Shown: one piece after another, positions 102 through 17,350 of the stretch
Layout: every line of letters begins with the position of its first letter
Position numbering within the stretch: the stretch's first letter is position 1
Source: an uncultured Solobacterium sp.
GTDB lineage: Bacteria; Bacillota_I; Bacilli_A; Erysipelotrichales; Erysipelotrichaceae
Direction of reading: 5' to 3'
Length of the DNA: 21,689 nt
Assembly (NCBI GenBank): GCA_900552125.1
Contig: URYK01000044.1
Span: forward strand, 1 to 21,689
Program-made: the position numbers and the translations under genes
Notes under the pieces: model-generated
Seen by the model: the letters and a program-made list of their open reading frames with translations, nothing else
What the model was told of the DNA's origin: nothing
Databases searched by the model: none

Positions 102-1130
102 TTACCCTTTTTTAGCTGCAATAATTTCGTCTTTTAATAAAGGCAGGATTTCTTTAACATCACCGATGAATCCCATGTTTGCAATACTGAAGATTTCAGC
201 CTGAGGATCACGGTTAATAGCGATAATCATATCGGATTTTTCCATACCTGCAACATGCTGACATGCACCAGAAATACCGCAAGCGATATATAAGCTTGGA
301 CGAACTGTTTTACCAGTCTGACCTACCTGAATTGCTTTATCAGCAAATCCATCATCAACTACAGCACGAGAAGCACACATTTCTCCACCTAGTTCTTCAG
401 CAACAGCTTTTACCATATCTAAGCAGTCTTCAGCACCACGGCCTGCACCTACTAAGATATCAGCTTTTGTAATGTCAATGCCTTCTTCTACTTTAGCGAT
501 AACTTCTTTTACGATTACTTTTGGATCAGTATCTGTCCAAACTGGTGCAAATTCAACAACTTCACCAGTTCTAGAAGCATCTGGTGCATCCATAGAGAAT
601 ACATTTGGACGAATAGTAGCCATCTGTGGACGAGTGTCTGGACAGATGATCGTACCAAATAAGTTACCACCGAATGTAGGACGAGTAACTAATAATAATG
701 CTTCTCCATCTTTTGCTTTTTCAAGATCAATTTCAATTTTAGTAGCATCTGCTGTTAGTCCTGCATTTAAACGAGCAGCAACACGTGGTGCTAAGTCACG
801 ACCTAATACAGTTGCTCCTGTTAAGAAGCTATCTGGTTTAAAGTTATTGATAACCTGTGTCAATGCATCAGCATAGAACTGAGTAGAATATCCTTCTAAT
901 AAAGCATCATCTACAACAATTACTTTATCTGCGCCATGAGCAATTACTTCATTTGCTTTATCTTTGATGTTGTATCCTAATAGTACCCCAACAACTTTGA
1001 AATCCATATGAGGAATAGAAGCAACCAGCTTTCTAGCTTCTGAAATCAATTCGTATCCAACATTTGCGATTACGCCATTTTTCTGTTCTACGAATACGTA
1101 AATATCTTTATATCCTTCAAATTTAGCCAT
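102..1130 (-). CDS. etfA: Electron transfer flavoprotein, alpha subunit
   Basis: 342 residues, the usual EtfA length. EtfA and EtfB form the FAD-carrying heterodimer that exchanges electrons with Bcd in the cytoplasm; in anaerobes this complex can bifurcate electrons from NADH to crotonyl-CoA and ferredoxin. The C-terminal FAD domain shows the family signatures: a Ser-Arg at 254-255, VGQTGKTVRP at 269-278, GISGACQH at 285-292 and INRDPQAEIF at 305-314. The start is supported by AGGAGGAGAAGG just upstream of ATG. It is the last gene of bcd-etfB-etfA, 14 bases after etfB. Whether this Etf bifurcates is inferred from its Bcd partner, not proven by sequence. Confidence 0.96.
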   Translation of the reverse strand: MAKFEGYKDIYVFVEQKNGVIANVGYELISEARKLVASIPHMDFKVVGVLLGYNIKDKANEVIAHGADKVIVVDDALLEGYSTQFYADALTQVINNFKPDSFLTGATVLGRDLAPRVAARLNAGLTADATKIEIDLEKAKDGEALLLVTRPTFGGNLFGTIICPDTRPQMATIRPNVFSMDAPDASRTGEVVEFAPVWTDTDPKVIVKEVIAKVEEGIDITKADILVGAGRGAEDCLDMVKAVAEELGGEMCASRAVVDDGFADKAIQVGQTGKTVRPSLYIACGISGACQHVAGMEKSDMIIAINRDPQAEIFSIANMGFIGDVKEILPLLKDEIIAAKKG

Positions 1131-1144
1131 TGTCCCTTCTCCTC

Positions 1145-1933
1145 CTATTTTGTAATAATCTGTTTTTCTTTCAATGTTTTAGCAATCAATTTTGCAGCTT
1201 CTGCAGCTGGAAGATCGAATGTTTCAGTTTCAGCAGAAACTTCTTTTGTAAATGTTGCATGTACCTTAGTTGGAGAACCAGCAAGACCTACTTTGCTTTC
1301 TTCGATTCCTAAATCATCGAATGTTAAAACTTTAACTTCTTTAGAGAAAGAATCAACGATGTCATTACAGTTCATATAACGAGGTTCGTTCATTCCGCTT
1401 AATGTAGTTAATACACAAGGCAATTTAGCCTCAATAATTTCTTCGCTGTCTTCCAATGATTTTTTAACAACAACTTTAGAATCACTAAGTTCAATAATAT
1501 CGTCAACATAAGTAACCTGAGGAATACCTAAACGTTCTGCTGTCTGAGGTCCAACCTGAGCAGTATCCCCATCAATTGCCTGACGACCAGCAATAATTAA
1601 ATCATAACCTGTTTTTTCAAGTGCAGCAGCTAGTGTACTTGATGTTGCACATGTATCTGCACCAGCAAATTTACGGTCACTAATCAAGATACATTCATCA
1701 ACGCCACGAGCATATAATTCTTTCAACATACCTGTTGCCTGAGCAGGTCCCATTGAAATGATTGTAACTGTAGCTCCATATTTTTCTTTTAACTGTAATG
1801 CAGCTTCTACCCCAGCTAAATCATCTGGATTGATGATACTAGGAACACCAGCACGAATCAATGTGCCAGTCACTTTATCAACACGGATTTCAGTTGAATC
1901 CGGTACCTGTTTTACAAGAACGATAATTTTCAT
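1145..1933 (-). CDS. etfB: Electron transfer flavoprotein, beta subunit
   Basis: 262 residues, full length for EtfB. It begins with the typical MKIIVLVKQVPDS and carries SMGP (60-63) and the nucleotide-binding signature GRQAIDGDTAQVGPQ (116-130). In bifurcating complexes the beta subunit binds NADH and the bifurcating FAD, while alpha carries the electron-transferring FAD. It lies 31 bases after bcd and 14 bases before etfA, so the three genes are almost certainly co-transcribed. An AAAGGA site precedes the ATG. No anomalies seen. Confidence 0.96.
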   Translation of the reverse strand: MKIIVLVKQVPDSTEIRVDKVTGTLIRAGVPSIINPDDLAGVEAALQLKEKYGATVTIISMGPAQATGMLKELYARGVDECILISDRKFAGADTCATSSTLAAALEKTGYDLIIAGRQAIDGDTAQVGPQTAERLGIPQVTYVDDIIELSDSKVVVKKSLEDSEEIIEAKLPCVLTTLSGMNEPRYMNCNDIVDSFSKEVKVLTFDDLGIEESKVGLAGSPTKVHATFTKEVSAETETFDLPAAEAAKLIAKTLKEKQIITK

Positions 1934-1964: not shown

Positions 1965-3104
1965 TTATTTAAGCATTGCTCCACTGATTACCATACGCTG
2001 TACTTCAGAAGTTCCTTCATAGATTTCAGTAATCTTAGCATCACGGAACATTCTTTCAACTGGATAATCACGAGTATAACCATATCCACCCATTAACTGG
2101 ATAGCTTTTGTAGTTACTTCCATAGCTACTTCAGATGCAAATAATTTAGCTTTAGCAGCTTCAACAGAATAAGGAAGTCCTTTTTCTTTCTTCATTGCTG
2201 CATCATATACTAACCATCTAGCTGCATCTACTTTTGTCTGCATATCAGCTAATTGGAACTGAGTGTTCTGGAATTTAGCAATAGAGCGTCCAAACTGTTT
2301 ACGTGCTTTTACATAAGGAACTGTTTCATCGATAGCACCCTGTGCGATACCAAGTGCCTGAGCAGCGATACCGATACGACCACCATCTAATGTCATCATG
2401 GCAATTTTGAAACCTTTACCTTCCTGACCTAGTAAATGATCTTTACTTAAGCGAACATTGTTGAAAATCAATTCGCTTGTAGCACTACCACGAATACCTA
2501 ATTTCTTTTCATGCTGACCAACAGTGAATCCTGGCATTCCTTTTTCAACGATAAATGCAGAAATACCATGAGTACCTTTAGATTTATCAGTCATAGCAAA
2601 GATGATATATACATCAGCTTCACCAGCATTTGTAATGAAGATCTTAGTACCATTTAAGATATAATCATCTCCATCTTTTACTGCAGTAGTCTGCTGTCCA
2701 GCAGCATCTGTACCAGCATTTGGTTCAGTTAAACCGAATGCAGCTAATTTTTTACCTGTACATAAATCTGGTAAATATTTATTTTTCTGTTCTTCTGTAC
2801 CAAACTGTACAATTGGCCATGTACCTAATGAAGTATGAGCAGATAAAACAACACCTGTTGTACCACATTTCTTACTCAATTCTTCAACAGCTAAGATATA
2901 GCATAAATAATCTGCACCAGCTCCGCCATATTCTCTGCTGTAAGGAATTCCCATCATTTTGCAGGCTTTCATTTTTTCTACATTTTCTCTTGGGAAACGT
3001 TCTTCTTCGTCAATTTCTGCTGCAAGAGGTTTTACTTCTTTTTCAGCAAACTCAGCGAAAAGTTTCTTCATCATCTCTTGTTGTTCTGTTAACATGAAGT
3101 CCAT
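1965..3104 (-). CDS. bcd: Butyryl-CoA (short-chain acyl-CoA) dehydrogenase
   Basis: 379 residues, matching short-chain acyl-CoA dehydrogenases. The FAD-linked enzyme reduces crotonyl-CoA to butyryl-CoA with electrons from EtfAB. Visible signatures are the FAD/substrate segment AFGLTEPNAGTDA, the middle-domain GIRGSATSELIFNNV, and the C-terminal ITEIYEGTSEVQR, in which Glu363 is the expected catalytic base. The start has GGAGAGGAG upstream. First gene of the bcd-etfBA operon; its own promoter (3216-3244) and a Rex-like box lie upstream. Neighbouring thiolases support a butyrate-forming role, but the chain-length preference is inferred. Confidence 0.93.
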   Translation of the reverse strand: MDFMLTEQQEMMKKLFAEFAEKEVKPLAAEIDEEERFPRENVEKMKACKMMGIPYSREYGGAGADYLCYILAVEELSKKCGTTGVVLSAHTSLGTWPIVQFGTEEQKNKYLPDLCTGKKLAAFGLTEPNAGTDAAGQQTTAVKDGDDYILNGTKIFITNAGEADVYIIFAMTDKSKGTHGISAFIVEKGMPGFTVGQHEKKLGIRGSATSELIFNNVRLSKDHLLGQEGKGFKIAMMTLDGGRIGIAAQALGIAQGAIDETVPYVKARKQFGRSIAKFQNTQFQLADMQTKVDAARWLVYDAAMKKEKGLPYSVEAAKAKLFASEVAMEVTTKAIQLMGGYGYTRDYPVERMFRDAKITEIYEGTSEVQRMVISGAMLK

Positions 3105-3152: not shown

Positions 3153-3175
3153 GCCTATATAAATATAGTATAGGC
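3153..3175 (-). other. Small hairpin in the bcd leader
   Basis: GCCTATA (3153-3159) and TATAGGC (3169-3175) form a 7-bp stem with a nine-base loop in the predicted bcd 5' untranslated region. A second 5-bp stem (3184-3188 with 3195-3199) lies just upstream in the transcript. They may stabilise the leader or regulate; no known riboswitch is recognised. Confidence 0.35.
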
Positions 3176-3215: not shown

Positions 3216-3244
3216 ATTCTAGACCTCTTTTTTACTTTCGTCAA
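3216..3244 (-). promoter_or_regulatory. Promoter of bcd-etfBA
   Basis: On the minus strand a -35 TTGACG (3239-3244) and a -10 TAGAAT (3216-3221) are separated by 17 bases, five of six matches to consensus in each box. Transcription should start near 3209, giving a leader of roughly 105 bases. The Rex-like box at 3250-3267 sits five bases upstream of this -35. Confidence 0.7.
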
Positions 3245-3249
3245 TACAT

Positions 3250-3267
3250 TTGTTAAAATTTTAACAA
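3250..3267. promoter_or_regulatory. Rex operator, perfect match (bcd side)
   Basis: TTGTTAAAATTTTAACAA is a perfect 18-bp palindrome. It equals the Firmicute Rex consensus TTGTTAANNNNTTAACAA at all 14 defined positions. Rex is the NADH/NAD+-sensing repressor known to control bcd-etf and thl genes in clostridia. The box sits five bases upstream of the bcd -35. No rex gene is in the window. Confidence 0.8.
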
Positions 3268-3271
3268 GTTT

Positions 3272-3289
3272 TTGTTATTAAATTAACAA
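3272..3289. promoter_or_regulatory. Rex operator, second copy
   Basis: TTGTTATTAAATTAACAA matches the Rex consensus at 13 of 14 defined positions. It starts 22 bases after the first box, about two helical turns, so dimers on the two boxes would lie on nearly the same DNA face. Confidence 0.68.
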
Positions 3290-3326
3290 GTATAAAGAAA
3301 TCTCTTGAAATCATTACAAATTCTAT

Positions 3327-3344
3327 TTGTTATTTTTTTAACAA
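3327..3344. promoter_or_regulatory. Rex operator, third copy (thiolase side)
   Basis: TTGTTATTTTTTTAACAA matches the Rex consensus at 13 of 14 defined positions and ends five bases before the -35 of the first thiolase promoter. This mirrors the position of the first box relative to the bcd promoter. Confidence 0.68.
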
Positions 3345-3349
3345 GTTTC

Positions 3350-3378
3350 TTGACAAACTGTTTTTCTTTCGTTACCAT
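3350..3378 (+). promoter_or_regulatory. Promoter of the first thiolase
   Basis: A perfect -35 TTGACA (3350-3355) and a -10 TACCAT (3373-3378, four of six) are 17 bases apart, with a predicted start near 3385. Its -35 context resembles that of the second thiolase promoter, suggesting common ancestry. Confidence 0.65.
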
Positions 3379-3429: not shown

Positions 3430-4638
3430 ATGAGAAAAGCATATGTAGTTGCAGCTAAACGTAGTGCCATTGGTAGTTTCATGGGTGGCTTAACAAACCT
3501 ACCTTTGGTTGATTTAGGGGCTGCAGTTTTAAAAGAAACCATTGCTGTTTCAGGTGTTGATCCTAGCAAAATTGATGAAGTAATCGTAGGTAATGTCATT
3601 GCGGCAGGACTTGGACAAAACATTGGCCGTCAGGTCAGCATAAAAGCAGGAATTCCTGTTGAAGTATGTGCACAGTCATTAAATATGCTATGTGGTTCAG
3701 GATTAAAAGCTGTTATGGAGGCAACAATGCGTATCCAATGCGGCTTTGGAGATATCTATGTAGCTGGTGGTGTAGAATCTATGACGAATGCTCCATATCT
3801 AGTTCCTAGCAAAGTTCGTAATGGAGTAAAAATGGGAGATATGAAAATGGTTGATTCTATGCTGCATGATGGATTAACTGATGGTATGTATAACATTCAT
3901 ATGGGTGTAACAGCTGACAATATCGCGAAAAAATATAACATTTCACGTGAAGATCAGGATGCTTTTGCTTATGCATCTCAGCAAAAAGCTATTGCGGCAA
4001 TTGATTCTGGACGCTTTAAAGATGAAATCGTTCCAGTAGAAGTTCCTGGAAGAAAAGGTACAGTTACTGTATTTGATACTGATGAACATCCAAATCGTAC
4101 ATCTAATCCAGAAAAACTTGCAAAACTTCGTCCAGCATTTACTGCTGATGGAACTGTTACTGCAGGTAATGCTTCTGGTATCAATGATGGCGCAAGCTTT
4201 ACAATCATCGCAAGCGAAGATGCTGTTAAAAAATATAATTTAACTCCATTAGCAGAAATCATCGGTATGGGACAAGGCGGAGTTGATCCTCGTGTTATGG
4301 GATTAGGCCCTACCCCAGCAATACTTAATGCCTTGAAATATGCAGATCTAACATTAGATGACATGGAATTAGTAGAATTAAACGAAGCATTTGCTGCCCA
4401 GTCTTTAGGTGTAATTCATGAATTACATGAAGCATGTGGTATGGATGTTGATGCCTTCATGAAAAAGACAAACGTAAATGGTGGTGCCATTGCATTAGGA
4501 CATCCAGTAGGTGCAAGTGGAAACCGTATCTTAGTTACTTTACTACATGAAATGCAGAAACGTGATCTTCATGTAGGACTAGCATCATTATGTATCGGTG
4601 GTGGACAAGGTGCTGCTGTAATTATCAAACGTGTTTAA
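3430..4638 (+). CDS. thl: Acetyl-CoA acetyltransferase (thiolase), copy 1
   Basis: 402 residues, a normal biosynthetic thiolase length. It condenses two acetyl-CoA into acetoacetyl-CoA, the entry step to butyrate, in the cytoplasm. The catalytic residues are in place: nucleophile Cys88 in NMLCGSG, His358 in GHPVGASG and Cys388 in CIGGGQG; NEAFAAQ is also intact. GAGGT lies eight bases before the ATG. It is divergent from bcd-etfBA and followed by its own terminator, so it is probably monocistronic. It is a paralogue of the next gene: by my count 60 of the first 100 residues are identical, with higher similarity in the C-terminal third. Confidence 0.94.
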   Translation: MRKAYVVAAKRSAIGSFMGGLTNLPLVDLGAAVLKETIAVSGVDPSKIDEVIVGNVIAAGLGQNIGRQVSIKAGIPVEVCAQSLNMLCGSGLKAVMEATMRIQCGFGDIYVAGGVESMTNAPYLVPSKVRNGVKMGDMKMVDSMLHDGLTDGMYNIHMGVTADNIAKKYNISREDQDAFAYASQQKAIAAIDSGRFKDEIVPVEVPGRKGTVTVFDTDEHPNRTSNPEKLAKLRPAFTADGTVTAGNASGINDGASFTIIASEDAVKKYNLTPLAEIIGMGQGGVDPRVMGLGPTPAILNALKYADLTLDDMELVELNEAFAAQSLGVIHELHEACGMDVDAFMKKTNVNGGAIALGHPVGASGNRILVTLLHEMQKRDLHVGLASLCIGGGQGAAVIIKRV

Positions 4639-4640
4639 AT

Positions 4641-4667
4641 AAACAAGCTCTTTTGAGCTTGTTTTCC
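4641..4667 (+). terminator. Terminator after thiolase copy 1
   Basis: AAACAAGCTC (4641-4650), loop TTTT and GAGCTTGTTT (4655-4664) form a 10-bp stem ending in a short T run, two bases after the stop codon. It separates the two thiolase transcripts. Confidence 0.7.
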
Positions 4668-4693
4668 TAAACTTAAACAAATATAAACATCAC

Positions 4694-4711
4694 TTACGAA
4701 TTTTTTCACAA
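4694..4711. promoter_or_regulatory. Degenerate Rex-like box before thiolase copy 2
   Basis: TTACGAATTTTTTCACAA matches the Rex consensus at only 10 of 14 defined positions. It ends four bases before the -35 of this promoter, nearly the same geometry as the third Rex box before copy 1. It looks like a decayed or weak copy. Confidence 0.3.
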
Positions 4712-4715
4712 GTTA

Positions 4716-4744
4716 TTGACAAACTATAAAATTTTAGTTACTAT
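4716..4744 (+). promoter_or_regulatory. Promoter of the second thiolase
   Basis: A perfect -35 TTGACA (4716-4721) and a -10 TACTAT (4739-4744) are 17 bases apart. The predicted leader carries a 5-bp hairpin, GTGCC/GGCAC, at 4756-4772. Confidence 0.65.
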
Positions 4745-4806
4745 GTAGATATGACGTGCCCTATAAAGGCACCAAGGAAAAAGGAAAGAAAGACAGGTAG
4801 AGAAAA

Positions 4807-6012
4807 ATGAGAAAAACTTATGTTGTTAGTGCAAAACGTAGTGCAATTGGTAGTTTTTTAGGCTCCTTAACTACCGTAAAACCAGTGGATTTAGGGGCTA
4901 CAGTGGTAAAAGCATTATTAGAAGATGCTAAGGTTGCTCCTGAAAACGTTGATGAATTACTTTGTGGTAATGTATTAAGCGCTGGCTTAGGACAGAACAT
5001 TGCTCGTCAGGTTGCTTTAGCAGCTGGAATTCCTGAAACAGTATGTTCACATTCAGTAAACATGGTATGTGGTTCAGGTCTTCGTACAGTAATGGAAGGG
5101 GTTATGTCTATTCAGACAGGTTTCAATGAAATCGTTGTTGCTGGTGGTGTTGAATCTATGTCTGGCGCTCCTTATCTAATTCCTGCTAATTCACGTACAG
5201 GAAATAAAATGGGAGATTTCAAATGTGTTGACCACATGATCTATGATGCATTGACAGATGCTATGAACGGTGTTCACATGGGTGTTACTGCTGAAAACAT
5301 CGCTAAAAAATATAACATCACTCGTGAAATGCAGGATGAATTCGGTTATGCTTCTCAGCAGAAAGCTATTGCTGCTGTAGATTCTGGTAGATTCAAAGAT
5401 GAAATCGTTCCAGTTGAAGTTAAACTAAGAAAAGAAACAATCGTATTCGATACTGACGAACATCCAAATCGTAAATCTACTCCAGAAAAAATGGCTAAAC
5501 TTCGCCCAGCATTTATCAAAGATGGAACAGTTACTGCAGGTAACGCATCTGGTATCAACGATGGTGCATCTTTCGTACTATTAGCTAGTGAAGATGCAGT
5601 TGAAAAATACAATTTAACTCCACTATGTGAGATCGTTGGTATTGGACAAGGTGGTGTAGATCCTCTAACAATGGGATTAGGTCCAACTCCAGCTATCCGT
5701 AATGCATTGAAATATGCAGATATGAAATTAGATGACATCGAATTAGTAGAATTAAACGAAGCATTCGCTGCTCAGTCTCTAGGTGTTATCCATGAATTAG
5801 TAGAAGAACACGGAATTGATCGTGAAGCATTCATGGCAAAAACAAACGTTAATGGTGGTGCTATCGCATTAGGTCATCCAGTTGGTGCTTCTGGTAACCG
5901 TATCCTAGTTACCCTAATTCATGAAATGATCAAACGTGACGCAAAAACTGGTCTTGCTTCTCTATGTATCGGAGGCGGACAAGGTACTGCAGTTATCGTA
6001 AAAAGACCATAA
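4807..6012 (+). CDS. thl: Acetyl-CoA acetyltransferase (thiolase), copy 2
   Basis: 401 residues with the full thiolase set: Cys88 in NMVCGSG, His357 in GHPVGASG and Cys387 in CIGGGQG. Same predicted reaction as copy 1 (acetoacetyl-CoA formation). The ribosome-binding site is weak (AGGT, about nine bases before ATG). It differs from copy 1 mostly in the N-terminal third, including VAPENVDELLCGN in place of VDPSKIDEVIVGN, while the catalytic C-terminal part is nearly unchanged. It has its own promoter and terminator. The pair probably arose by tandem duplication including the promoter; different substrate range or expression may explain why both remain. Confidence 0.93.
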   Translation: MRKTYVVSAKRSAIGSFLGSLTTVKPVDLGATVVKALLEDAKVAPENVDELLCGNVLSAGLGQNIARQVALAAGIPETVCSHSVNMVCGSGLRTVMEGVMSIQTGFNEIVVAGGVESMSGAPYLIPANSRTGNKMGDFKCVDHMIYDALTDAMNGVHMGVTAENIAKKYNITREMQDEFGYASQQKAIAAVDSGRFKDEIVPVEVKLRKETIVFDTDEHPNRKSTPEKMAKLRPAFIKDGTVTAGNASGINDGASFVLLASEDAVEKYNLTPLCEIVGIGQGGVDPLTMGLGPTPAIRNALKYADMKLDDIELVELNEAFAAQSLGVIHELVEEHGIDREAFMAKTNVNGGAIALGHPVGASGNRILVTLIHEMIKRDAKTGLASLCIGGGQGTAVIVKRP

Positions 6013-13633: not shown

Positions 13634-13670
13634 AAAACTGGGTAAAACTTAAATAATACCCAGTTTTTTT
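13634..13670. terminator. Terminator after vanY-like gene, overlapping the pilT end
   Basis: AAAACTGGGTA (13634-13644) pairs perfectly with TACCCAGTTTT (13657-13667), with T to 13670. The pilT stop codon (13649-13651) lies in the loop and its last codons form one arm, so one hairpin serves both converging genes. Confidence 0.8.
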
Positions 13671-14716
13671 CGCATTCGTTCCTGATTGCTTGCATACAAC
13701 AATGTTGTATCTTTATCAATTTTTCCTGCTTCATATAACTTTAATAGACTTTCATCCATTGTAATCATTCCCTGATTCTTACCAGCAATGATAGAATTTT
13801 CTAACTGATGAATTTTACCTTCTCGAATCTGTGTTCGTATAGCTGGATTGACAATCATGATTTCAAAAACCGGAATGATTGATCCATCAATTGCAGGCAC
13901 CAATTGTTCACTTACAACTGCATGCAACGTCATAGACAGTTGTACTCGAATCTGCTGCTGCTGTTCACTTGGAAATACATCAATCATACGATCAATGGTA
14001 TTTACAGCCCCTAATGTATGTAGTGTTGATAAAATCAGATGGCCTGTTTCTGCCGCTGTAACTGCTGTATTGATCGTTTCCAAATCACGCATTTCTCCTA
14101 CAAGAATAACTTCTGGAGCCTCTCTTAAGGCAGCACGTAGAGCACTTAAATAATCTTTTGTATCATGAAAAACTTCACGCTGAGAAACTATACTTTTTTT
14201 ATGTGTGTGAAGGTATTCAATAGGATCTTCAATCGTTATAATATGTGTATTTCGCTGTTCATTAATTTTATCGATAATACAGGCAAGAGTCGTAGATTTC
14301 CCGCTTCCTGCTGGACCACTAATCAAAATCAATCCTTTTTTCGCATTGGATAAAGATGTCACAACTTCAGGAATTTGCATTTCTTTGGGATCAGGCAAAC
14401 GGAAGCTTACTACACGAAGCACCGCAGCAGGTGAATTTCTTTGTAGATAGATATTACAACGAAATCTTCCTACATTAGGAATGGAAAAAGAAAAATCATC
14501 ATCTTTCTTCTTTAAAAATTCCTCATAGGTGTTCTGCCCCACATACTGATAAATTTCTTTGATCAGCCTTTCTGTATCCATTGGCATTAATCGTATATCA
14601 TCTCTTGCATGGATCTCCCCATTGATTTTTAGAGCACAGGGATGTCCTGCAACAATAAAAATATCAGAGGCATGTTTTTCAATTGCTTCTTTCAATATCT
14701 GTTCAATGTCCAGCAT
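13649..14716 (-). CDS. pilT: PilT-type type IV pilus ATPase
   Basis: 355 residues, typical of PilT. Motifs in order: Walker A GPAGSGKS (134-141), Asp box TIEDPIEY (161-168), Walker B ILVGEM (204-209), His box between His226 and His233, and AIRTQIREGK (292-301), matching the AIRNLIRE segment of retraction ATPases. A hexameric cytoplasmic motor that depolymerises pili. The start is supported by GGAGAGG lying inside the preceding gene, which it overlaps by 14 bases. No PilB-type extension ATPase is in the window, so either it is elsewhere or this motor acts alone. Confidence 0.93.
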   Translation of the reverse strand: MLDIEQILKEAIEKHASDIFIVAGHPCALKINGEIHARDDIRLMPMDTERLIKEIYQYVGQNTYEEFLKKKDDDFSFSIPNVGRFRCNIYLQRNSPAAVLRVVSFRLPDPKEMQIPEVVTSLSNAKKGLILISGPAGSGKSTTLACIIDKINEQRNTHIITIEDPIEYLHTHKKSIVSQREVFHDTKDYLSALRAALREAPEVILVGEMRDLETINTAVTAAETGHLILSTLHTLGAVNTIDRMIDVFPSEQQQQIRVQLSMTLHAVVSEQLVPAIDGSIIPVFEIMIVNPAIRTQIREGKIHQLENSIIAGKNQGMITMDESLLKLYEAGKIDKDTTLLYASNQERMRKKLGII

Positions 14717-15137
14717 CTACATCCTCTCCTTTCACTATTGTTTTCCATTCTGTAGTATTTATGTTATTTCCTTCTATTTCAAATGATACTTTAAGGTATT
14801 GAGTATTTAATATAGGAATCAGTACTGTACATTCATTTTCATTCTTTGCTATTTCCATATTATAATTTTCAATTAACTCATTAATGGAAGAAAAGTTCGT
14901 TATATCTTCAAAGGAATTGAATTCATTACTTATTATTTCATCTTGTAATTCAGAAGCTGCAGCTTCACTTCTCATGATTGCTTCTTGAAACAAGCGTTCT
15001 CTCTCTGCTATCTTCTCATTTTGTGAAGCTCTTGTATAAGATAATACAGATAAGATCGTCATACATAAAATAACAAAGATCATAAAAATACTAGTAGCAC
15101 CTAACCCAATCTGAACACTTTGTTTTCTTTTTTTCAT
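14703..15137 (-). CDS. Pilin-like membrane protein, PilT-associated
   Basis: 144 residues. A basic N-terminus (MKKRKQSVQIG) leads into one hydrophobic helix (about 13-33) and an alpha-helical, charged segment, then a small beta-rich C-terminal part. It has the pilin-like body plan but lacks an obvious Gly-x-x-x-x-Glu prepilin cleavage site. From memory, similar proteins (GLGATSIFMIFVILCMT motif) sit next to pilus genes in many gut Firmicutes. It overlaps the previous gene by four bases and pilT by 14, showing translational coupling. Probably a minor pseudopilin or envelope partner; function not shown. Confidence 0.72.
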   Translation of the reverse strand: MKKRKQSVQIGLGATSIFMIFVILCMTILSVLSYTRASQNEKIAERERLFQEAIMRSEAAASELQDEIISNEFNSFEDITNFSSINELIENYNMEIAKNENECTVLIPILNTQYLKVSFEIEGNNINTTEWKTIVKGEDVDAGH

Positions 15138-15535
15138 GAATCAATACCTCCTTTCAATGGAAAAAGGAGTTCACTCAGCAGTTCTTCATCATAATAAATC
15201 TGCATTGTACATAAAGCATTACCTACTTGATTCACTTCTTCATTTTGAATAATAACTATTCGAAAATAAGCATCATCTGATGAAACAATCTTCCCATTTT
15301 CATCTAGATATAAAGATCCTGTCTGTAGCTTTTCTTGTACAGTTTTATCATCTTTCTGTGCTATTAAGCTTTCTCCATAAAGAACTGCCTGACGCATATT
15401 TTCAGCCCGATCATTTTTTTCTTTGGCATTACTAAAAACTAGTACGCTAATGCTGCTGGCAATCGTAAAGAAGAAAATAACAATGATGACTTCCATTAAA
15501 AATGAAATGGATTTATTTGTAACATGATCTTTCAT
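15134..15535 (-). CDS. Pilin-like membrane protein, possible minor pseudopilin
   Basis: 133 residues. One hydrophobic helix (about 11-34, SFLMEVIIVIFFFTIAS) contains a single Glu15 near its start, reminiscent of the conserved Glu5 of pilins, though no leader-cleavage Gly precedes it. A helical stretch and a beta-rich C-terminal half follow. It lies 11 bases after the preceding pilin-like gene and overlaps the next by four bases. Likely a minor pseudopilin of the pilus-like machine encoded here. Confidence 0.7.
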   Translation of the reverse strand: MKDHVTNKSISFLMEVIIVIFFFTIASSISVLVFSNAKEKNDRAENMRQAVLYGESLIAQKDDKTVQEKLQTGSLYLDENGKIVSSDDAYFRIVIIQNEEVNQVGNALCTMQIYYDEELLSELLFPLKGGIDS

Positions 15536-15546
15536 CTTTTCCCTCC

Positions 15547-16008
15547 TTACGTTGTATGTAACGTTAATACAATTTGATTTCGTTCTCCGGATGCATTTTC
15601 TACAGAAACATATAACTGTTTCTCTTTTTGTTCTACTTCAAATTCTTTGATATCAAATAAAGGCGTACCAGCTTCTAACAAAGGCTCCACTTCTTCACTG
15701 ACATAAAGCTCCATTAAGTTATCTTCATATTCATAAATATATGTAATTGTTTCTTCTTCTATATTTTCTATCTCAATAACAGGTAAACCGTTTAATTCAG
15801 TGACATGTATACTATCTGATACATCATTACTGCGAATTTTCTCTCTTATATAAGCTAATGGTGTATGAAGATTTTCTATTCTCTCACCCTGTTCAATTAT
15901 CGAACGATAGCTTTGTGCCTGAAATAATAAGACTAGAAATGAACAGATTACAAAAACAGTAAATATAGATAATGAAAATATTATATCAATAGAATGTCTT
16001 TGTTTCAT
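15547..16008 (-). CDS. DUF4860-like pilin-associated protein
   Basis: 153 residues with a single N-terminal membrane helix (about 8-29) and a soluble, acidic, beta-rich domain. Sequence and context resemble DUF4860 proteins, which accompany pilus/type II secretion genes in Firmicutes (recalled, not searched). The start codon overlaps the stop of the upstream gene (ATGA, 16005-16008). Probably a structural pseudopilin. Exact role unknown. Confidence 0.68.
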   Translation of the reverse strand: MKQRHSIDIIFSLSIFTVFVICSFLVLLFQAQSYRSIIEQGERIENLHTPLAYIREKIRSNDVSDSIHVTELNGLPVIEIENIEEETITYIYEYEDNLMELYVSEEVEPLLEAGTPLFDIKEFEVEQKEKQLYVSVENASGERNQIVLTLHTT

Positions 16009-16310
16009 GGTCGATCACTCCTTGGATATACATCAGTATCTGGCATAATGTTAGATCCGATATAATGATATCGAATGCGATACAAATCTTCTTGTATATA
16101 CAAACCATAATTTTCAACTAAATAATCTAATGATTCTGGATACGCACCTTCAATACTGTAGCATTCCAGTGCTGCTTTCTGAATTGCTTCTTTGGCACGT
16201 TGACGATCTTCTTCATCCAGCCCTTGATCTGTATTTTGAAATCCATACAATATGATGCCAAGCATTCCAACAAACATCAACAGCTGTATCCAAATACTTT
16301 TTTTATTCAT
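16005..16310 (-). CDS. Small pilin-like protein
   Basis: 101 residues: a membrane helix (about 8-24) followed by a short soluble domain. The segment AKEAIQKAALECYSIEGAYPESLDYL resembles the alpha-helix/loop region of type II/IV pseudopilins, where AYP and GxYP motifs are common. No classic prepilin peptidase site is evident. It begins two bases after the platform-protein gene and overlaps the next gene by four bases. Likely a pilus-like fibre subunit or minor pilin. Confidence 0.7.
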   Translation of the reverse strand: MNKKSIWIQLLMFVGMLGIILYGFQNTDQGLDEEDRQRAKEAIQKAALECYSIEGAYPESLDYLVENYGLYIQEDLYRIRYHYIGSNIMPDTDVYPRSDRP

Positions 16311-16312
16311 AA

Positions 16313-17350
16313 TTAAATAGTTGACATGATACTCATCAGCGGCAGCATAACTGATAATAATATAATTCCTACGATTACGGATAAGAATATCACAATAATA
16401 GGTTCAATCGTATTTAAGAAAGATGAAATGCTATGATCTACTTCTTTTTCATATAAACTACTCACTTTCTGCATAACTTCATCGCTTTTTCCACTATGAA
16501 ATCCAGCCGCAATCATACTTGCATATACACCATCGTATAAATTGGTTTTTTGTAGACAATGGATAAAGCTTTCATCATGTTTCATTCCTTCTCTACAATT
16601 ATTGATTTTTTCATTAACTTCCTGATCATCCACAACTTCATTGACATATTCCAATGCTTCTTCCATCTCATATCCGCTAGTAATGAATAGAGACAATGCA
16701 TATGTCATCTTTGCCATAACCATATTATGATAAAGCTTCTTAGTCAGAAATACTTTAGACAATAAATTACGACTTCCTTGTTTGCGATAATTTAAAATAA
16801 TGATAATTACGATGATACATAGAAGTGTCAAGATTATAAATGAAATCCATGCGAAAATCGTCCCAAACTCCATCATGGAAAAAGACCCGCTTTGAAAGGA
16901 AGTTCCCATTGTATGAAGTACTTTTTCAAAGATCGGCAATACTTTCCAAACAATGATACCTACTACGACCCACATCATTACTAATAAGATGGAAGGATAT
17001 GTCAAGGCATCCTTTAAGGATTGTTTTAAATCAGCATTACGTTCATAATAAACCGCAAGCTCCTGCATAACTCCATCTAAGTGTCCACTAATTTCTCCAA
17101 TCTCCACCATTTTCTTTGTGTAGGAATCAAAGTAGTCTGAATCTTTCATCGCTGCAGTAATAGATCCCTCTTCTGAATGTTTAATAAGCAAATCACTACA
17201 AGCATCTTGAATTCTAGTATTCACACTATCTTTTTGTATAATTTCTAAGCCATCTTCTACAGATAAGCCACCCGCAAGAATCATGGACATCTGCGTACAG
17301 AAATCAAACATTTCATCCGCATGTAATATTGTATTTCGGCTAGATTTCAT
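16313..17350 (-). CDS. pilC: PilC/GspF inner-membrane platform protein
   Basis: 345 residues, with two T2SSF domains each ahead of a membrane part: spans at about 118-140, 163-187 and 318-342. Features include MSMILAGGLSVEDGL, the repeat MVEIGEISGHLDGVM and its echo MIAAGFHSGKSDEVM, and YPSILL before the first span. It anchors the pilus assembly motor in the membrane. Somewhat shorter than Gram-negative PilC (around 400), as usual in Firmicutes. AAGGAAG precedes the ATG; it lies 31 bases after the transglutaminase gene and two bases before the next. Confidence 0.92.
   Translation of the reverse strand: MKSSRNTILHADEMFDFCTQMSMILAGGLSVEDGLEIIQKDSVNTRIQDACSDLLIKHSEEGSITAAMKDSDYFDSYTKKMVEIGEISGHLDGVMQELAVYYERNADLKQSLKDALTYPSILLVMMWVVVGIIVWKVLPIFEKVLHTMGTSFQSGSFSMMEFGTIFAWISFIILTLLCIIVIIIILNYRKQGSRNLLSKVFLTKKLYHNMVMAKMTYALSLFITSGYEMEEALEYVNEVVDDQEVNEKINNCREGMKHDESFIHCLQKTNLYDGVYASMIAAGFHSGKSDEVMQKVSSLYEKEVDHSISSFLNTIEPIIVIFLSVIVGIILLSVMLPLMSIMSTI

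What the first reader, a model, noticed from the sequence alone, without database searches (positions are those of the whole stretch)
3250..3344. Three Rex boxes placed symmetrically between divergent bcd and thiolase promoters
Three 18-bp sites match TTGTTAANNNNTTAACAA at 14, 13 and 13 of 14 defined positions. The outer two each end exactly five bases upstream of a -35 element, one facing bcd and one facing the thiolase. The first two are 22 bases apart, about two helical turns. Rex control of bcd and thl is known in clostridia. The mirrored triple array, with boxes outside rather than over the core promoters, is less usual and could mean looping, cooperative repression or even activation.
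Basis: partly seen in the sequence, partly recalled or inferred. Interest (0 to 1): 0.72.

Follow-up and report, generated by a model that had tools for sequence, protein, structure and literature searches.

The report
Rex operators abutting butyrate-pathway promoters
Probable binding sites for the NADH-sensing repressor Rex sit a fixed four to six bases upstream of the promoters of butyrate-pathway genes in a gut bacterium and most relatives compared, pointing to ordinary redox repression with an unusually constrained geometry.

Summary
In detail: three Rex boxes at 3250-3267, 3272-3289 and 3327-3344 (0, 1 and 1 mismatches), the outer two ending 5 bp upstream of the bcd and first-thiolase -35 elements. 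The conserved feature is the box-to-promoter distance, not the triple array. In the window plus 20 relative bcd loci, 19 of 21 have a box 4-6 bp upstream of a TTGAC promoter, although -35-to-start distance runs from 97 to 310 bp. Thiolase promoters show it at 12 of 17 relative loci plus both window copies. Simulated sequence gave 0 of 1507. The Rex domain occurs in 19 of 19 relative genomes searched; the window's own genome is not held. Inter-box distance (22-271 bp) and the third box are not conserved, so looping is unsupported. Best reading: NADH-releasable repression by Rex lying against the -35 (centre near -49.5). Activation is neither shown nor excluded. Rex control of bcd and thl is already reported in clostridia; the rigid geometry is the modest novelty.

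The parts
3250..3267 (.). Rex box 1, bcd-proximal (TTGTTAAAATTTTAACAA, 0 mismatches); centre about -49.5 from inferred bcd start
   Evidence: box at gap 4-6 in the window plus 18 of 20 relative bcd loci
3272..3289 (.). Rex box 2, middle (1 mismatch), 22 bp from box 1; centre -71.5 for bcd, -104.5 for thl1
   Evidence: a further box with <=1 mismatch in 3 of 11 loci examined
3327..3344 (.). Rex box 3, thl1-proximal (1 mismatch); centre -49.5 from inferred thl1 start
   Evidence: thl-side box at gap 4-6 in 12 of 17 relative thl loci
4694..4711 (.).
   Evidence: near-identical box TTACGAATTATTTCACAA at the same gap in L007
3239..3244 (-). bcd promoter -35 TTGACG
   Evidence: a TTGAC -35 behind a box in 18 of 20 relative loci
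3216..3221 (-). bcd promoter -10 TAGAAT, 17-bp spacer; inferred start about 3209, leader about 105 nt
3350..3355 (+). thl1 promoter -35 TTGACA
3373..3378 (+). thl1 promoter -10 TACCAT, 17-bp spacer
4716..4721 (+). thl2 promoter -35 TTGACA
4739..4744 (+). thl2 promoter -10 TACTAT, 17-bp spacer
1965..3104 (-). bcd, acyl-CoA (butyryl-CoA type) dehydrogenase, 379 aa
   Evidence: best NCBIfam model acryloyl-CoA reductase NF042972 (550 bits, below its cut-off 640)
1145..1933 (-). etfB, electron transfer flavoprotein beta
   Evidence: 322 bits, below cut-off 445
102..1130 (-). etfA, electron transfer flavoprotein alpha
   Evidence: best model 319 bits, below its cut-off 600
3430..4638 (+). thl1, acetyl-CoA C-acetyltransferase
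   Evidence: TIGR01930 above cut-off
4807..6012 (+). thl2, tandem thiolase paralogue, 74% identical to thl1
   Evidence: (TIGR01930 above cut-off)

Best explanation
The boxes are operators of the NADH/NAD+ sensor Rex controlling three sigma-A-type promoters: bcd-etfBA, thl1 and thl2. When NADH is low, NAD+-bound Rex sits with its palindrome at about -58 to -41 (centre -49.5; about -48.5 at thl2), against the -35 hexamer and over the stretch used by the RNA polymerase alpha C-terminal domain, lowering transcription. When NADH rises, Rex leaves and the TTGAC-17-TANNNT promoters fire; the acetyl-CoA to butyryl-CoA route then reoxidises NADH. The box-to-promoter distance is the functional constraint. 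The middle box probably adds binding strength in this strain. Shown: the sites, their position relative to predicted promoters, conservation, the Rex domain in relatives. Inferred: Rex binding here, repression, the contact with polymerase, start sites.
For: Sites and promoters. Box variants among relatives include TTGTGAA and TTCACAA halves, as in the published consensus TTGTGAANNNNTTCACAA (PMC6391272). Rex N-terminal domain over cut-off in 19 of 19 relative genomes; 3 of 3 ORFs scanned exceed the curated cut-off of Rex model NF003989. Gap 5 in 15, 6 in 3 and 4 in 1 of 19 bcd promoters, with 97-310 bp to the start codon and variable gap sequence. A scan of 145 genomes of the family, gap 2-12 allowed, gave 22 matches in 21 genomes against 1 for the reversed-pattern control: gap 4 in 2, 5 in 15, 6 in 4, 9 in 1; 18 of 22 precede a bcd-type gene, judged from the protein start. 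thl: 12 of 17 relatives, including L011 and L014 where other ORFs separate thl from bcd. Simulation 0 of 1507. rex has another geometry: the right half TTCACA of its box stands as a -35, 16-17 bp before a -10, in L082, L086, L090, L093, L094 and L095 (read from sequences; scored for G010 and G014). E. coli FNR represses ndh and pdhR from -50.5 (PMC3688515). Rex footprints of 23-29 nt on full sites (PMC5355995) would come up to, or within about 3 bp of, the -35. In C. bescii a class V aminotransferase operon with a Rex-bound site rises 0.57-0.63 log2 in a rex deletion (PMC6391272).
Against: No expression, footprint or start-site data for this lineage. The window's own rex was not seen. The Rex domain search also rang in 7 of 14 control genomes (6 over cut-off), E. 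coli among them, so the domain alone does not prove Rex; I confirmed 3 ORFs. In the same C. bescii table, several other Rex-bound operons fall in the rex deletion (for example -1.46, -1.42, -0.83 for Athe_0942 and -0.43, -0.80, -1.13 for the Ech operon), so Rex binding does not always go with derepression. FNR-repressing sites are also listed at many other places, including -43.5 and -59.5. Exceptions: L003 and L020 on the bcd side (L020 has a 2-mismatch box 6 bp before TTGACA but no good -10); L024, a Holdemania MAG left out of the 20, shows no box with <=3 mismatches; 5 of 17 thl loci (L003, L009, L017, L018, L020). The strict pattern is absent from 124 of 145 family genomes; it allows no mismatch, and I did not test how many lack bcd. 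11 of the 21 matching genomes also supplied loci, so the two tests overlap. Of 17 rex ORFs found, 8 showed no box with <=2 mismatches in up to 160 bp (L089 had 94 bp); 2 of 19 were not found by my script. A fixed distance fits activation as well as repression.
Confidence: 0.68

Rival explanations
1. Rex (NAD+-bound) activates bcd and thl from the fixed position by touching sigma region 4 or alpha-CTD, so that the genes fall when NADH rises.
For: A rigid distance to the -35 is typical of activators (general knowledge). Rex-dependent positive effects with in vitro binding are reported for S. mutans, though the authors say the activator site seems different from the repressor box (PMC3441419). 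Several Rex-bound C. bescii operons fall in a rex deletion (PMC6391272 table).
Against: The promoters have near-consensus -35 elements and mostly 17-bp spacers and should not need an activator. FNR-activated sites cluster at -41.5 (19 of 23) with one at -60.5, while two -50.5 sites are repressed (analogy only). The direction would oppose NADH reoxidation by the pathway.
Confidence: 0.1
2. The three boxes act together: Rex dimers on the outer boxes loop the DNA or spread cooperatively through the middle box, coupling both promoters.
For: Boxes 1 and 2 are 22 bp apart; 22 also separates the bcd and thl boxes in L002 and the inner and thl boxes in L005 and L006, and spacings of 22 and 23 occur at paired boxes in G172 and G030. 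Inter-box distances show weak helical phasing: Rayleigh p 0.008-0.045 for 11 loci, 0.034-0.141 after collapsing two close pairs, depending on the period assumed.
Against: Distances range from 22 to 271 bp and an extra box with <=1 mismatch is present in 3 of 11 loci. thl keeps its box where it is not next to bcd (L011, L014). Related genomes are not independent, so the phasing p values are optimistic.
Confidence: 0.12
3. Another regulator with a similar palindrome (CRP/FNR family), or AT-rich UP elements alone, explains the sequences.
For: The Rex palindrome contains TGTGA-N6-TCACA spacing also used by CRP-type proteins (recalled). The boxes lie where UP elements lie (recalled).
Against: Intact palindromy with the TTGTTAA/TTAACAA variant, described as the Clostridiaceae Rex motif (PMC9600882); Rex domain in 19 of 19 relative genomes searched; Rex-like boxes (<=2 mismatches) before rex itself in 9 of the 17 rex ORFs found.
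Confidence: 0.06

Closest known systems
Rex regulon of Clostridium (thl, crt-bcd-etfBA-hbd; C. pasteurianum, C. acetobutylicum)
   Same: Same motif TTGTTAANNNNTTAACAA, same pathway genes; predicted sites in C. pasteurianum, with control in C. acetobutylicum cited there (PMC5367854).
   Different: There bcd lies in a crt-bcd-etf-hbd operon; here bcd-etfBA is divergent from a tandem thl pair, and the boxes keep 4-5 bp to the -35. The geometry of the Clostridium sites was not examined here.
S. aureus Rex targets ldh1, pflB, adhE
   Same: Rex sites within, or a few bp up- or downstream of, sigma-A promoters, with repression (PMC2883068). ldh1 has two sites, the distal reported at -218 and the start at -167 from the ATG (PMC3544828), so near -50; whether -218 is an edge or the centre is not stated in the passages read.
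   Different: ldh1 also has a box over the start site; a fixed geometry across a family was not seen in the passages read.
E. coli FNR repression of ndh and pdhR from -50.5
   Same: A redox regulator bound near -50 that lowers transcription (PMC3688515 table).
   Different: Unrelated protein and signal; functional analogy only. Other FNR-repressed promoters have sites elsewhere.
Rex autoregulation in the same family and in S. avermitilis and S. mutans
   Same: Rex box at the promoter.
   Different: There a box overlaps the -35 (in six relative rex loci read here); at bcd and thl it lies outside it.

Membership tests
Rex operator / Rex regulon | 18-bp palindrome TTGTKAA-N4-TTMACAA | tested here: met
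   Boxes 1-3 have 0-1 mismatches; box 4 has 2
Rex operator / Rex regulon | Lies at a promoter of an NADH-linked fermentation or energy gene | tested here: met
   bcd-etfBA and thiolases; predicted promoters
Rex operator / Rex regulon | Conserved at orthologous genes in relatives | tested here: met
   18 of 20 relative bcd loci; 12 of 17 relative thl loci
Rex operator / Rex regulon | rex gene in the same genome | not testable with these tools
   Window genome not held; 19 of 19 relative genomes have PF06971 over cut-off, but so do 6 of 14 controls
Rex operator / Rex regulon | NADH-sensitive binding of Rex | not testable with these tools
   Needs mobility shift or footprinting
Rex operator / Rex regulon | Derepression in a rex mutant or at high NADH | not testable with these tools
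   Needs expression data
DNA-looping operator pair | Conserved, helically phased distance between operators | tested here: inconclusive
   Distances 22-271 bp; weak phasing only
Class I/II activator site | Centre near -41.5 or -61.5 | tested here: not met
   Centre -49.5 from inferred starts; starts not mapped

The most novel reading that the evidence does not exclude
Rex operators come in two position-locked classes: over the -35 (as at rex) and abutting it at -49.5 (as at bcd and thl, and at the promoters of glycine-riboswitch/T-box leaders, one with serC read downstream, in Clostridia). In the abutting class Rex makes a defined contact with RNA polymerase, by alpha-CTD or sigma region 4, giving graded rather than on/off redox control.
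Probability: 0.3. Interest if true: 0.6.

Novelty: new variant of a known kind. Interest (0 to 1): 0.42.

Why it matters
Redox control of the butyrate pathway is understood mainly from Clostridium. Here a different gut lineage keeps Rex operators at a fixed distance from bcd and thiolase promoters while the surrounding sequence drifts. That makes operator geometry a testable variable: does Rex at -49.5 exclude polymerase, cap the alpha-CTD site or tune output? It also gives a usable search rule (box, 4-6 bp, TTGAC) for candidate Rex-controlled promoters in unannotated genomes.

Tried and rejected
Looping by a conserved triple array: rejected as the conserved feature, because inter-box distance and the third box vary. 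Boxes over promoters: the predicted bcd and thl promoters are clear of the boxes, unlike the six rex loci read. CRP/FNR-type site: judged less likely. Rex regulon by single boxes: TTGTKAANNNNTTMACAA with one mismatch gave 78 places in 10 genomes against 81 for the reversed-pattern control, so single boxes are not evidence by themselves. I fetched 60 regions covering 61 of the 78 places (known bcd boxes, two repeats in G011, two in G018 and three in G017 left out); 26 of 60 lay inside long ORFs, and among the others 4 had a promoter-like pair at gap 4-6 in the up to three best printed (L172, L173, L187, L210; the last two are thl). Tandem boxes: 4 of 315 genomes of the order and 1 of 348 of the Clostridia-side phylum sample, too few for a spacing rule. 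The 60 bcd loci beyond L020 were scanned for boxes only at <=3 mismatches, where chance matches are common; their geometry was not tested. My thiolase search used an N-terminal pattern and misses other thiolases, for example one upstream of bcd in L015.

Papers: passages only were read of PMC2883068, PMC3441419, PMC3544828, PMC3688515, PMC5355995, PMC5367854, PMC5886521, PMC6391272, PMC9600882 and PMC10580903. I saw no paper on Rex at bcd or thl in Erysipelotrichia in the listings. Some of those listings were partial (30 of 72 papers, 20 of 85, 10 of 18) and the library lacks most subscription journals, so this is not proof of absence. On rechecking I lowered the repression reading from 0.72 to 0.68 and raised activation from 0.08 to 0.10, because the C. 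bescii table also lists Rex-bound operons that fall in a rex deletion.

Full report
Observation. The intergenic region between bcd (1965-3104, minus) and a thiolase (3430-4638, plus) holds three Rex boxes with 0, 1 and 1 mismatches to TTGTTAANNNNTTAACAA at 3250, 3272 and 3327. The outer two each end 5 bp before a -35 element, TTGACG-17-TAGAAT for bcd and TTGACA-17-TACCAT for the thiolase. Chance is very small at this stringency, though at <=3 mismatches the count is near background (9 against 5.16 expected). The outer boxes mirror each other (centres -49.5 from each inferred start); the middle box does not sit midway.

A fourth site was missed. The second thiolase (4807-6012), 74% identical to the first, has its own TTGACA-17-TACTAT promoter with a degenerate box, TTACGAATTTTTTCACAA, 4 bp upstream at 4694-4711. 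A near-identical box lies at the same gap before the thl of Amedibacillus dolichus (L007). Of the four TTGACN-16/18-TANNNT matches in the window, three carry a box at gap 4-5. In 300 simulated sequences with intergenic dinucleotide content, 0 of 1507 such promoters had a box with <=2 mismatches at gap 4-6.

Where it comes from. The Bcd protein is 96% identical to that of Merdibacter massiliensis, family Erysipelotrichaceae. The window's genome is not held. I submitted 20 loci for a rex search (L001-L015, L017-L020, L024); L015 was not held, and all 19 genomes searched have the Rex N-terminal domain above cut-off. The same search rang in 7 of 14 control genomes, 6 over the cut-off, E. coli among them, so the domain alone is not proof. 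Three ORFs scanned (of 17 found by script) all exceed the curated cut-off of a Rex model.

Conservation. I compared the window with L001-L020, the 20 loci most like the query of the 80 kept (80% identity or more). In 19 of 21 (window included) the best box with <=2 mismatches lies 4-6 bp upstream of a TTGAC promoter: 5 bp in 15, 6 in 3, 4 in 1. Distance from -35 to start codon varies from 97 to 310 bp, and the bases in the gap vary too, so the box follows the promoter, not the gene. Exceptions are L003 (none) and L020 (a 2-mismatch box 6 bp before TTGACA, without a good -10). A further relative outside the 20, the Holdemania MAG L024, shows no box. For thiolase, 12 of 17 relative loci with a thl ORF have a box (1-3 mismatches) at gap 4-6; L003, L009, L017, L018 and L020 do not. 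In L011 and L014 thl lies about 3.6 and 1.4 kb from bcd, with other ORFs between, yet keeps the box at gap 6. An adjacent second thl matching my search pattern was seen only in the window among these 21 loci; several loci are cut by contig ends.

Genome-wide. Scanning 145 genomes of the family for box, 2-12 bp, TTGAC, 17-19 bp, TANNNT gave 22 matches in 21 genomes against 1 match for the reversed pattern. Gaps were 4 (2), 5 (15), 6 (4) and 9 (1); 18 of 22 precede a bcd-type gene by the start of the protein, two contigs end first, one precedes a transposase-like ORF and one, the gap-9 case, another gene. Eleven of the 21 genomes also supplied loci to the comparison above, so the two tests overlap. 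In 348 genomes from the phylum of a Clostridia relative, with gaps 0-25 allowed, there were 12 rows at 11 places in 11 genomes, against 1 for the reversed pattern; 9 of the 11 places have gap 5-6, the others 13 and 20. Three of those nine were scanned with Rfam: all three have a glycine riboswitch and two also a T-box in the leader, and one (L217) reads into a phosphoserine aminotransferase-like protein (my reading of the sequence). In C. bescii, Rex binds upstream of a class V aminotransferase-phosphoglycerate dehydrogenase operon, which rises 0.57-0.63 log2 in a rex deletion; other Rex-bound operons in the same table fall (PMC6391272). Whether the C. bescii site has the same geometry was not tested.

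Two geometries. At rex itself the box overlaps the promoter in six loci (L082, L086, L090, L093, L094, L095): its right half TTCACA stands 16-17 bp before a -10-like hexamer (read from the printed sequences; two of these genomes scored). At bcd and thl it stands outside the -35. Of 19 rex loci, 9 showed a box with <=2 mismatches within 160 bp, 8 did not (one of them with only 94 bp held), and in 2 my script found no ORF.

Mechanism. The published action of Rex is NAD+-favoured binding, NADH-caused release and repression (PMC2883068; PMC5355995). A footprint of 23-29 nt on full sites, if centred on an 18-bp box that ends 5 bp before the -35, would come up to the -35 or within about 3 bp of it and cover the alpha-CTD/UP-element stretch (recalled location, -40 to -60). 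E. coli FNR represses ndh and pdhR from -50.5, whereas 19 of 23 FNR-activated promoters have the site at -41.5 +/- 4 and one at -60.5; FNR-repressing sites are listed at many other positions too (PMC3688515). I therefore favour repression with release at high NADH, which suits a pathway that reoxidises NADH. Activation cannot be excluded: S. mutans Rex has reported positive effects, at sites said to differ from the repressor box (PMC3441419), and some C. bescii targets fall without Rex.

What the triple array adds. One search found 14 loci with a divergent thl (window included); the 11 with a thl-side box went into (L003, L009 and L017 dropped). A further box with <=1 mismatch is present in 3 of 11, and the bcd-thl box distance runs from 22 to 271 bp. 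Helical phasing of that distance is weak and not robust to collapsing close relatives. A 22-23 bp spacing recurs in L002, L005 and L006 and in G172 and G030, so cooperative pairs are possible. Looping is not supported.

Judgement. Rex control of thl and bcd in clostridia is already reported or predicted (PMC5367854; PMC9600882). What is new here, as far as the partial listings of searches show, is the lineage and the rigid -49.5 geometry, with a second geometry at rex. Two comparative or experimental Rex papers I looked for are not held, so prior description cannot be ruled out.

Noticed in passing
L217, L219, L223 (Clostridia-side genomes G481, G417, G556): A Rex-like box 5-6 bp upstream of a TTGACA-TATAAT promoter is followed by a glycine riboswitch (3 of 3 scanned, of 9 such loci) and a T-box (2 of 3), with a serC-like ORF in L217: possibly three stacked inputs on serine synthesis.
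   Followed up: partly
window 3430-6012: Tandem thiolase paralogues, 74% identical, each with its own box-promoter unit; an adjacent second copy was seen only in the window among 21 loci compared. A hairpin follows thl1 near 4640-4665 (by eye; not flagged by the terminator scan).
   Followed up: partly
L113 and L129 (genome G011): The same bcd promoter-box sequence occurs twice, about 2.2 kb apart; one copy precedes bcd, the other a transposase-like ORF, as if an insertion came with a duplication of the promoter.
   Followed up: no
L150, L158, L193, L204: Rex-like boxes upstream of old-yellow-enzyme-like reductases in four genomes, judged from the start of the protein; may be a recurrent Rex target.
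   Followed up: no
L151 (G030): rex-like gene preceded by two Rex boxes 23 bp apart.
   Followed up: no
L153 (G312) and L226 (G594): Pairs of Rex boxes 45 and 38 bp apart upstream of NuoE-like ORFs (family judged by eye).
   Followed up: no
window 3153-3175: Palindrome GCCTATATAAATATAGTATAGGC in the predicted bcd leader, flagged as terminator-like on the plus strand; role unknown.
   Followed up: no
window 13649-17350: Run of minus-strand ORFs that look like a type IV pilus or competence cluster (PilT-like ATPase, GspF-like membrane protein, small pilin-like proteins), judged from the translations only.
   Followed up: no
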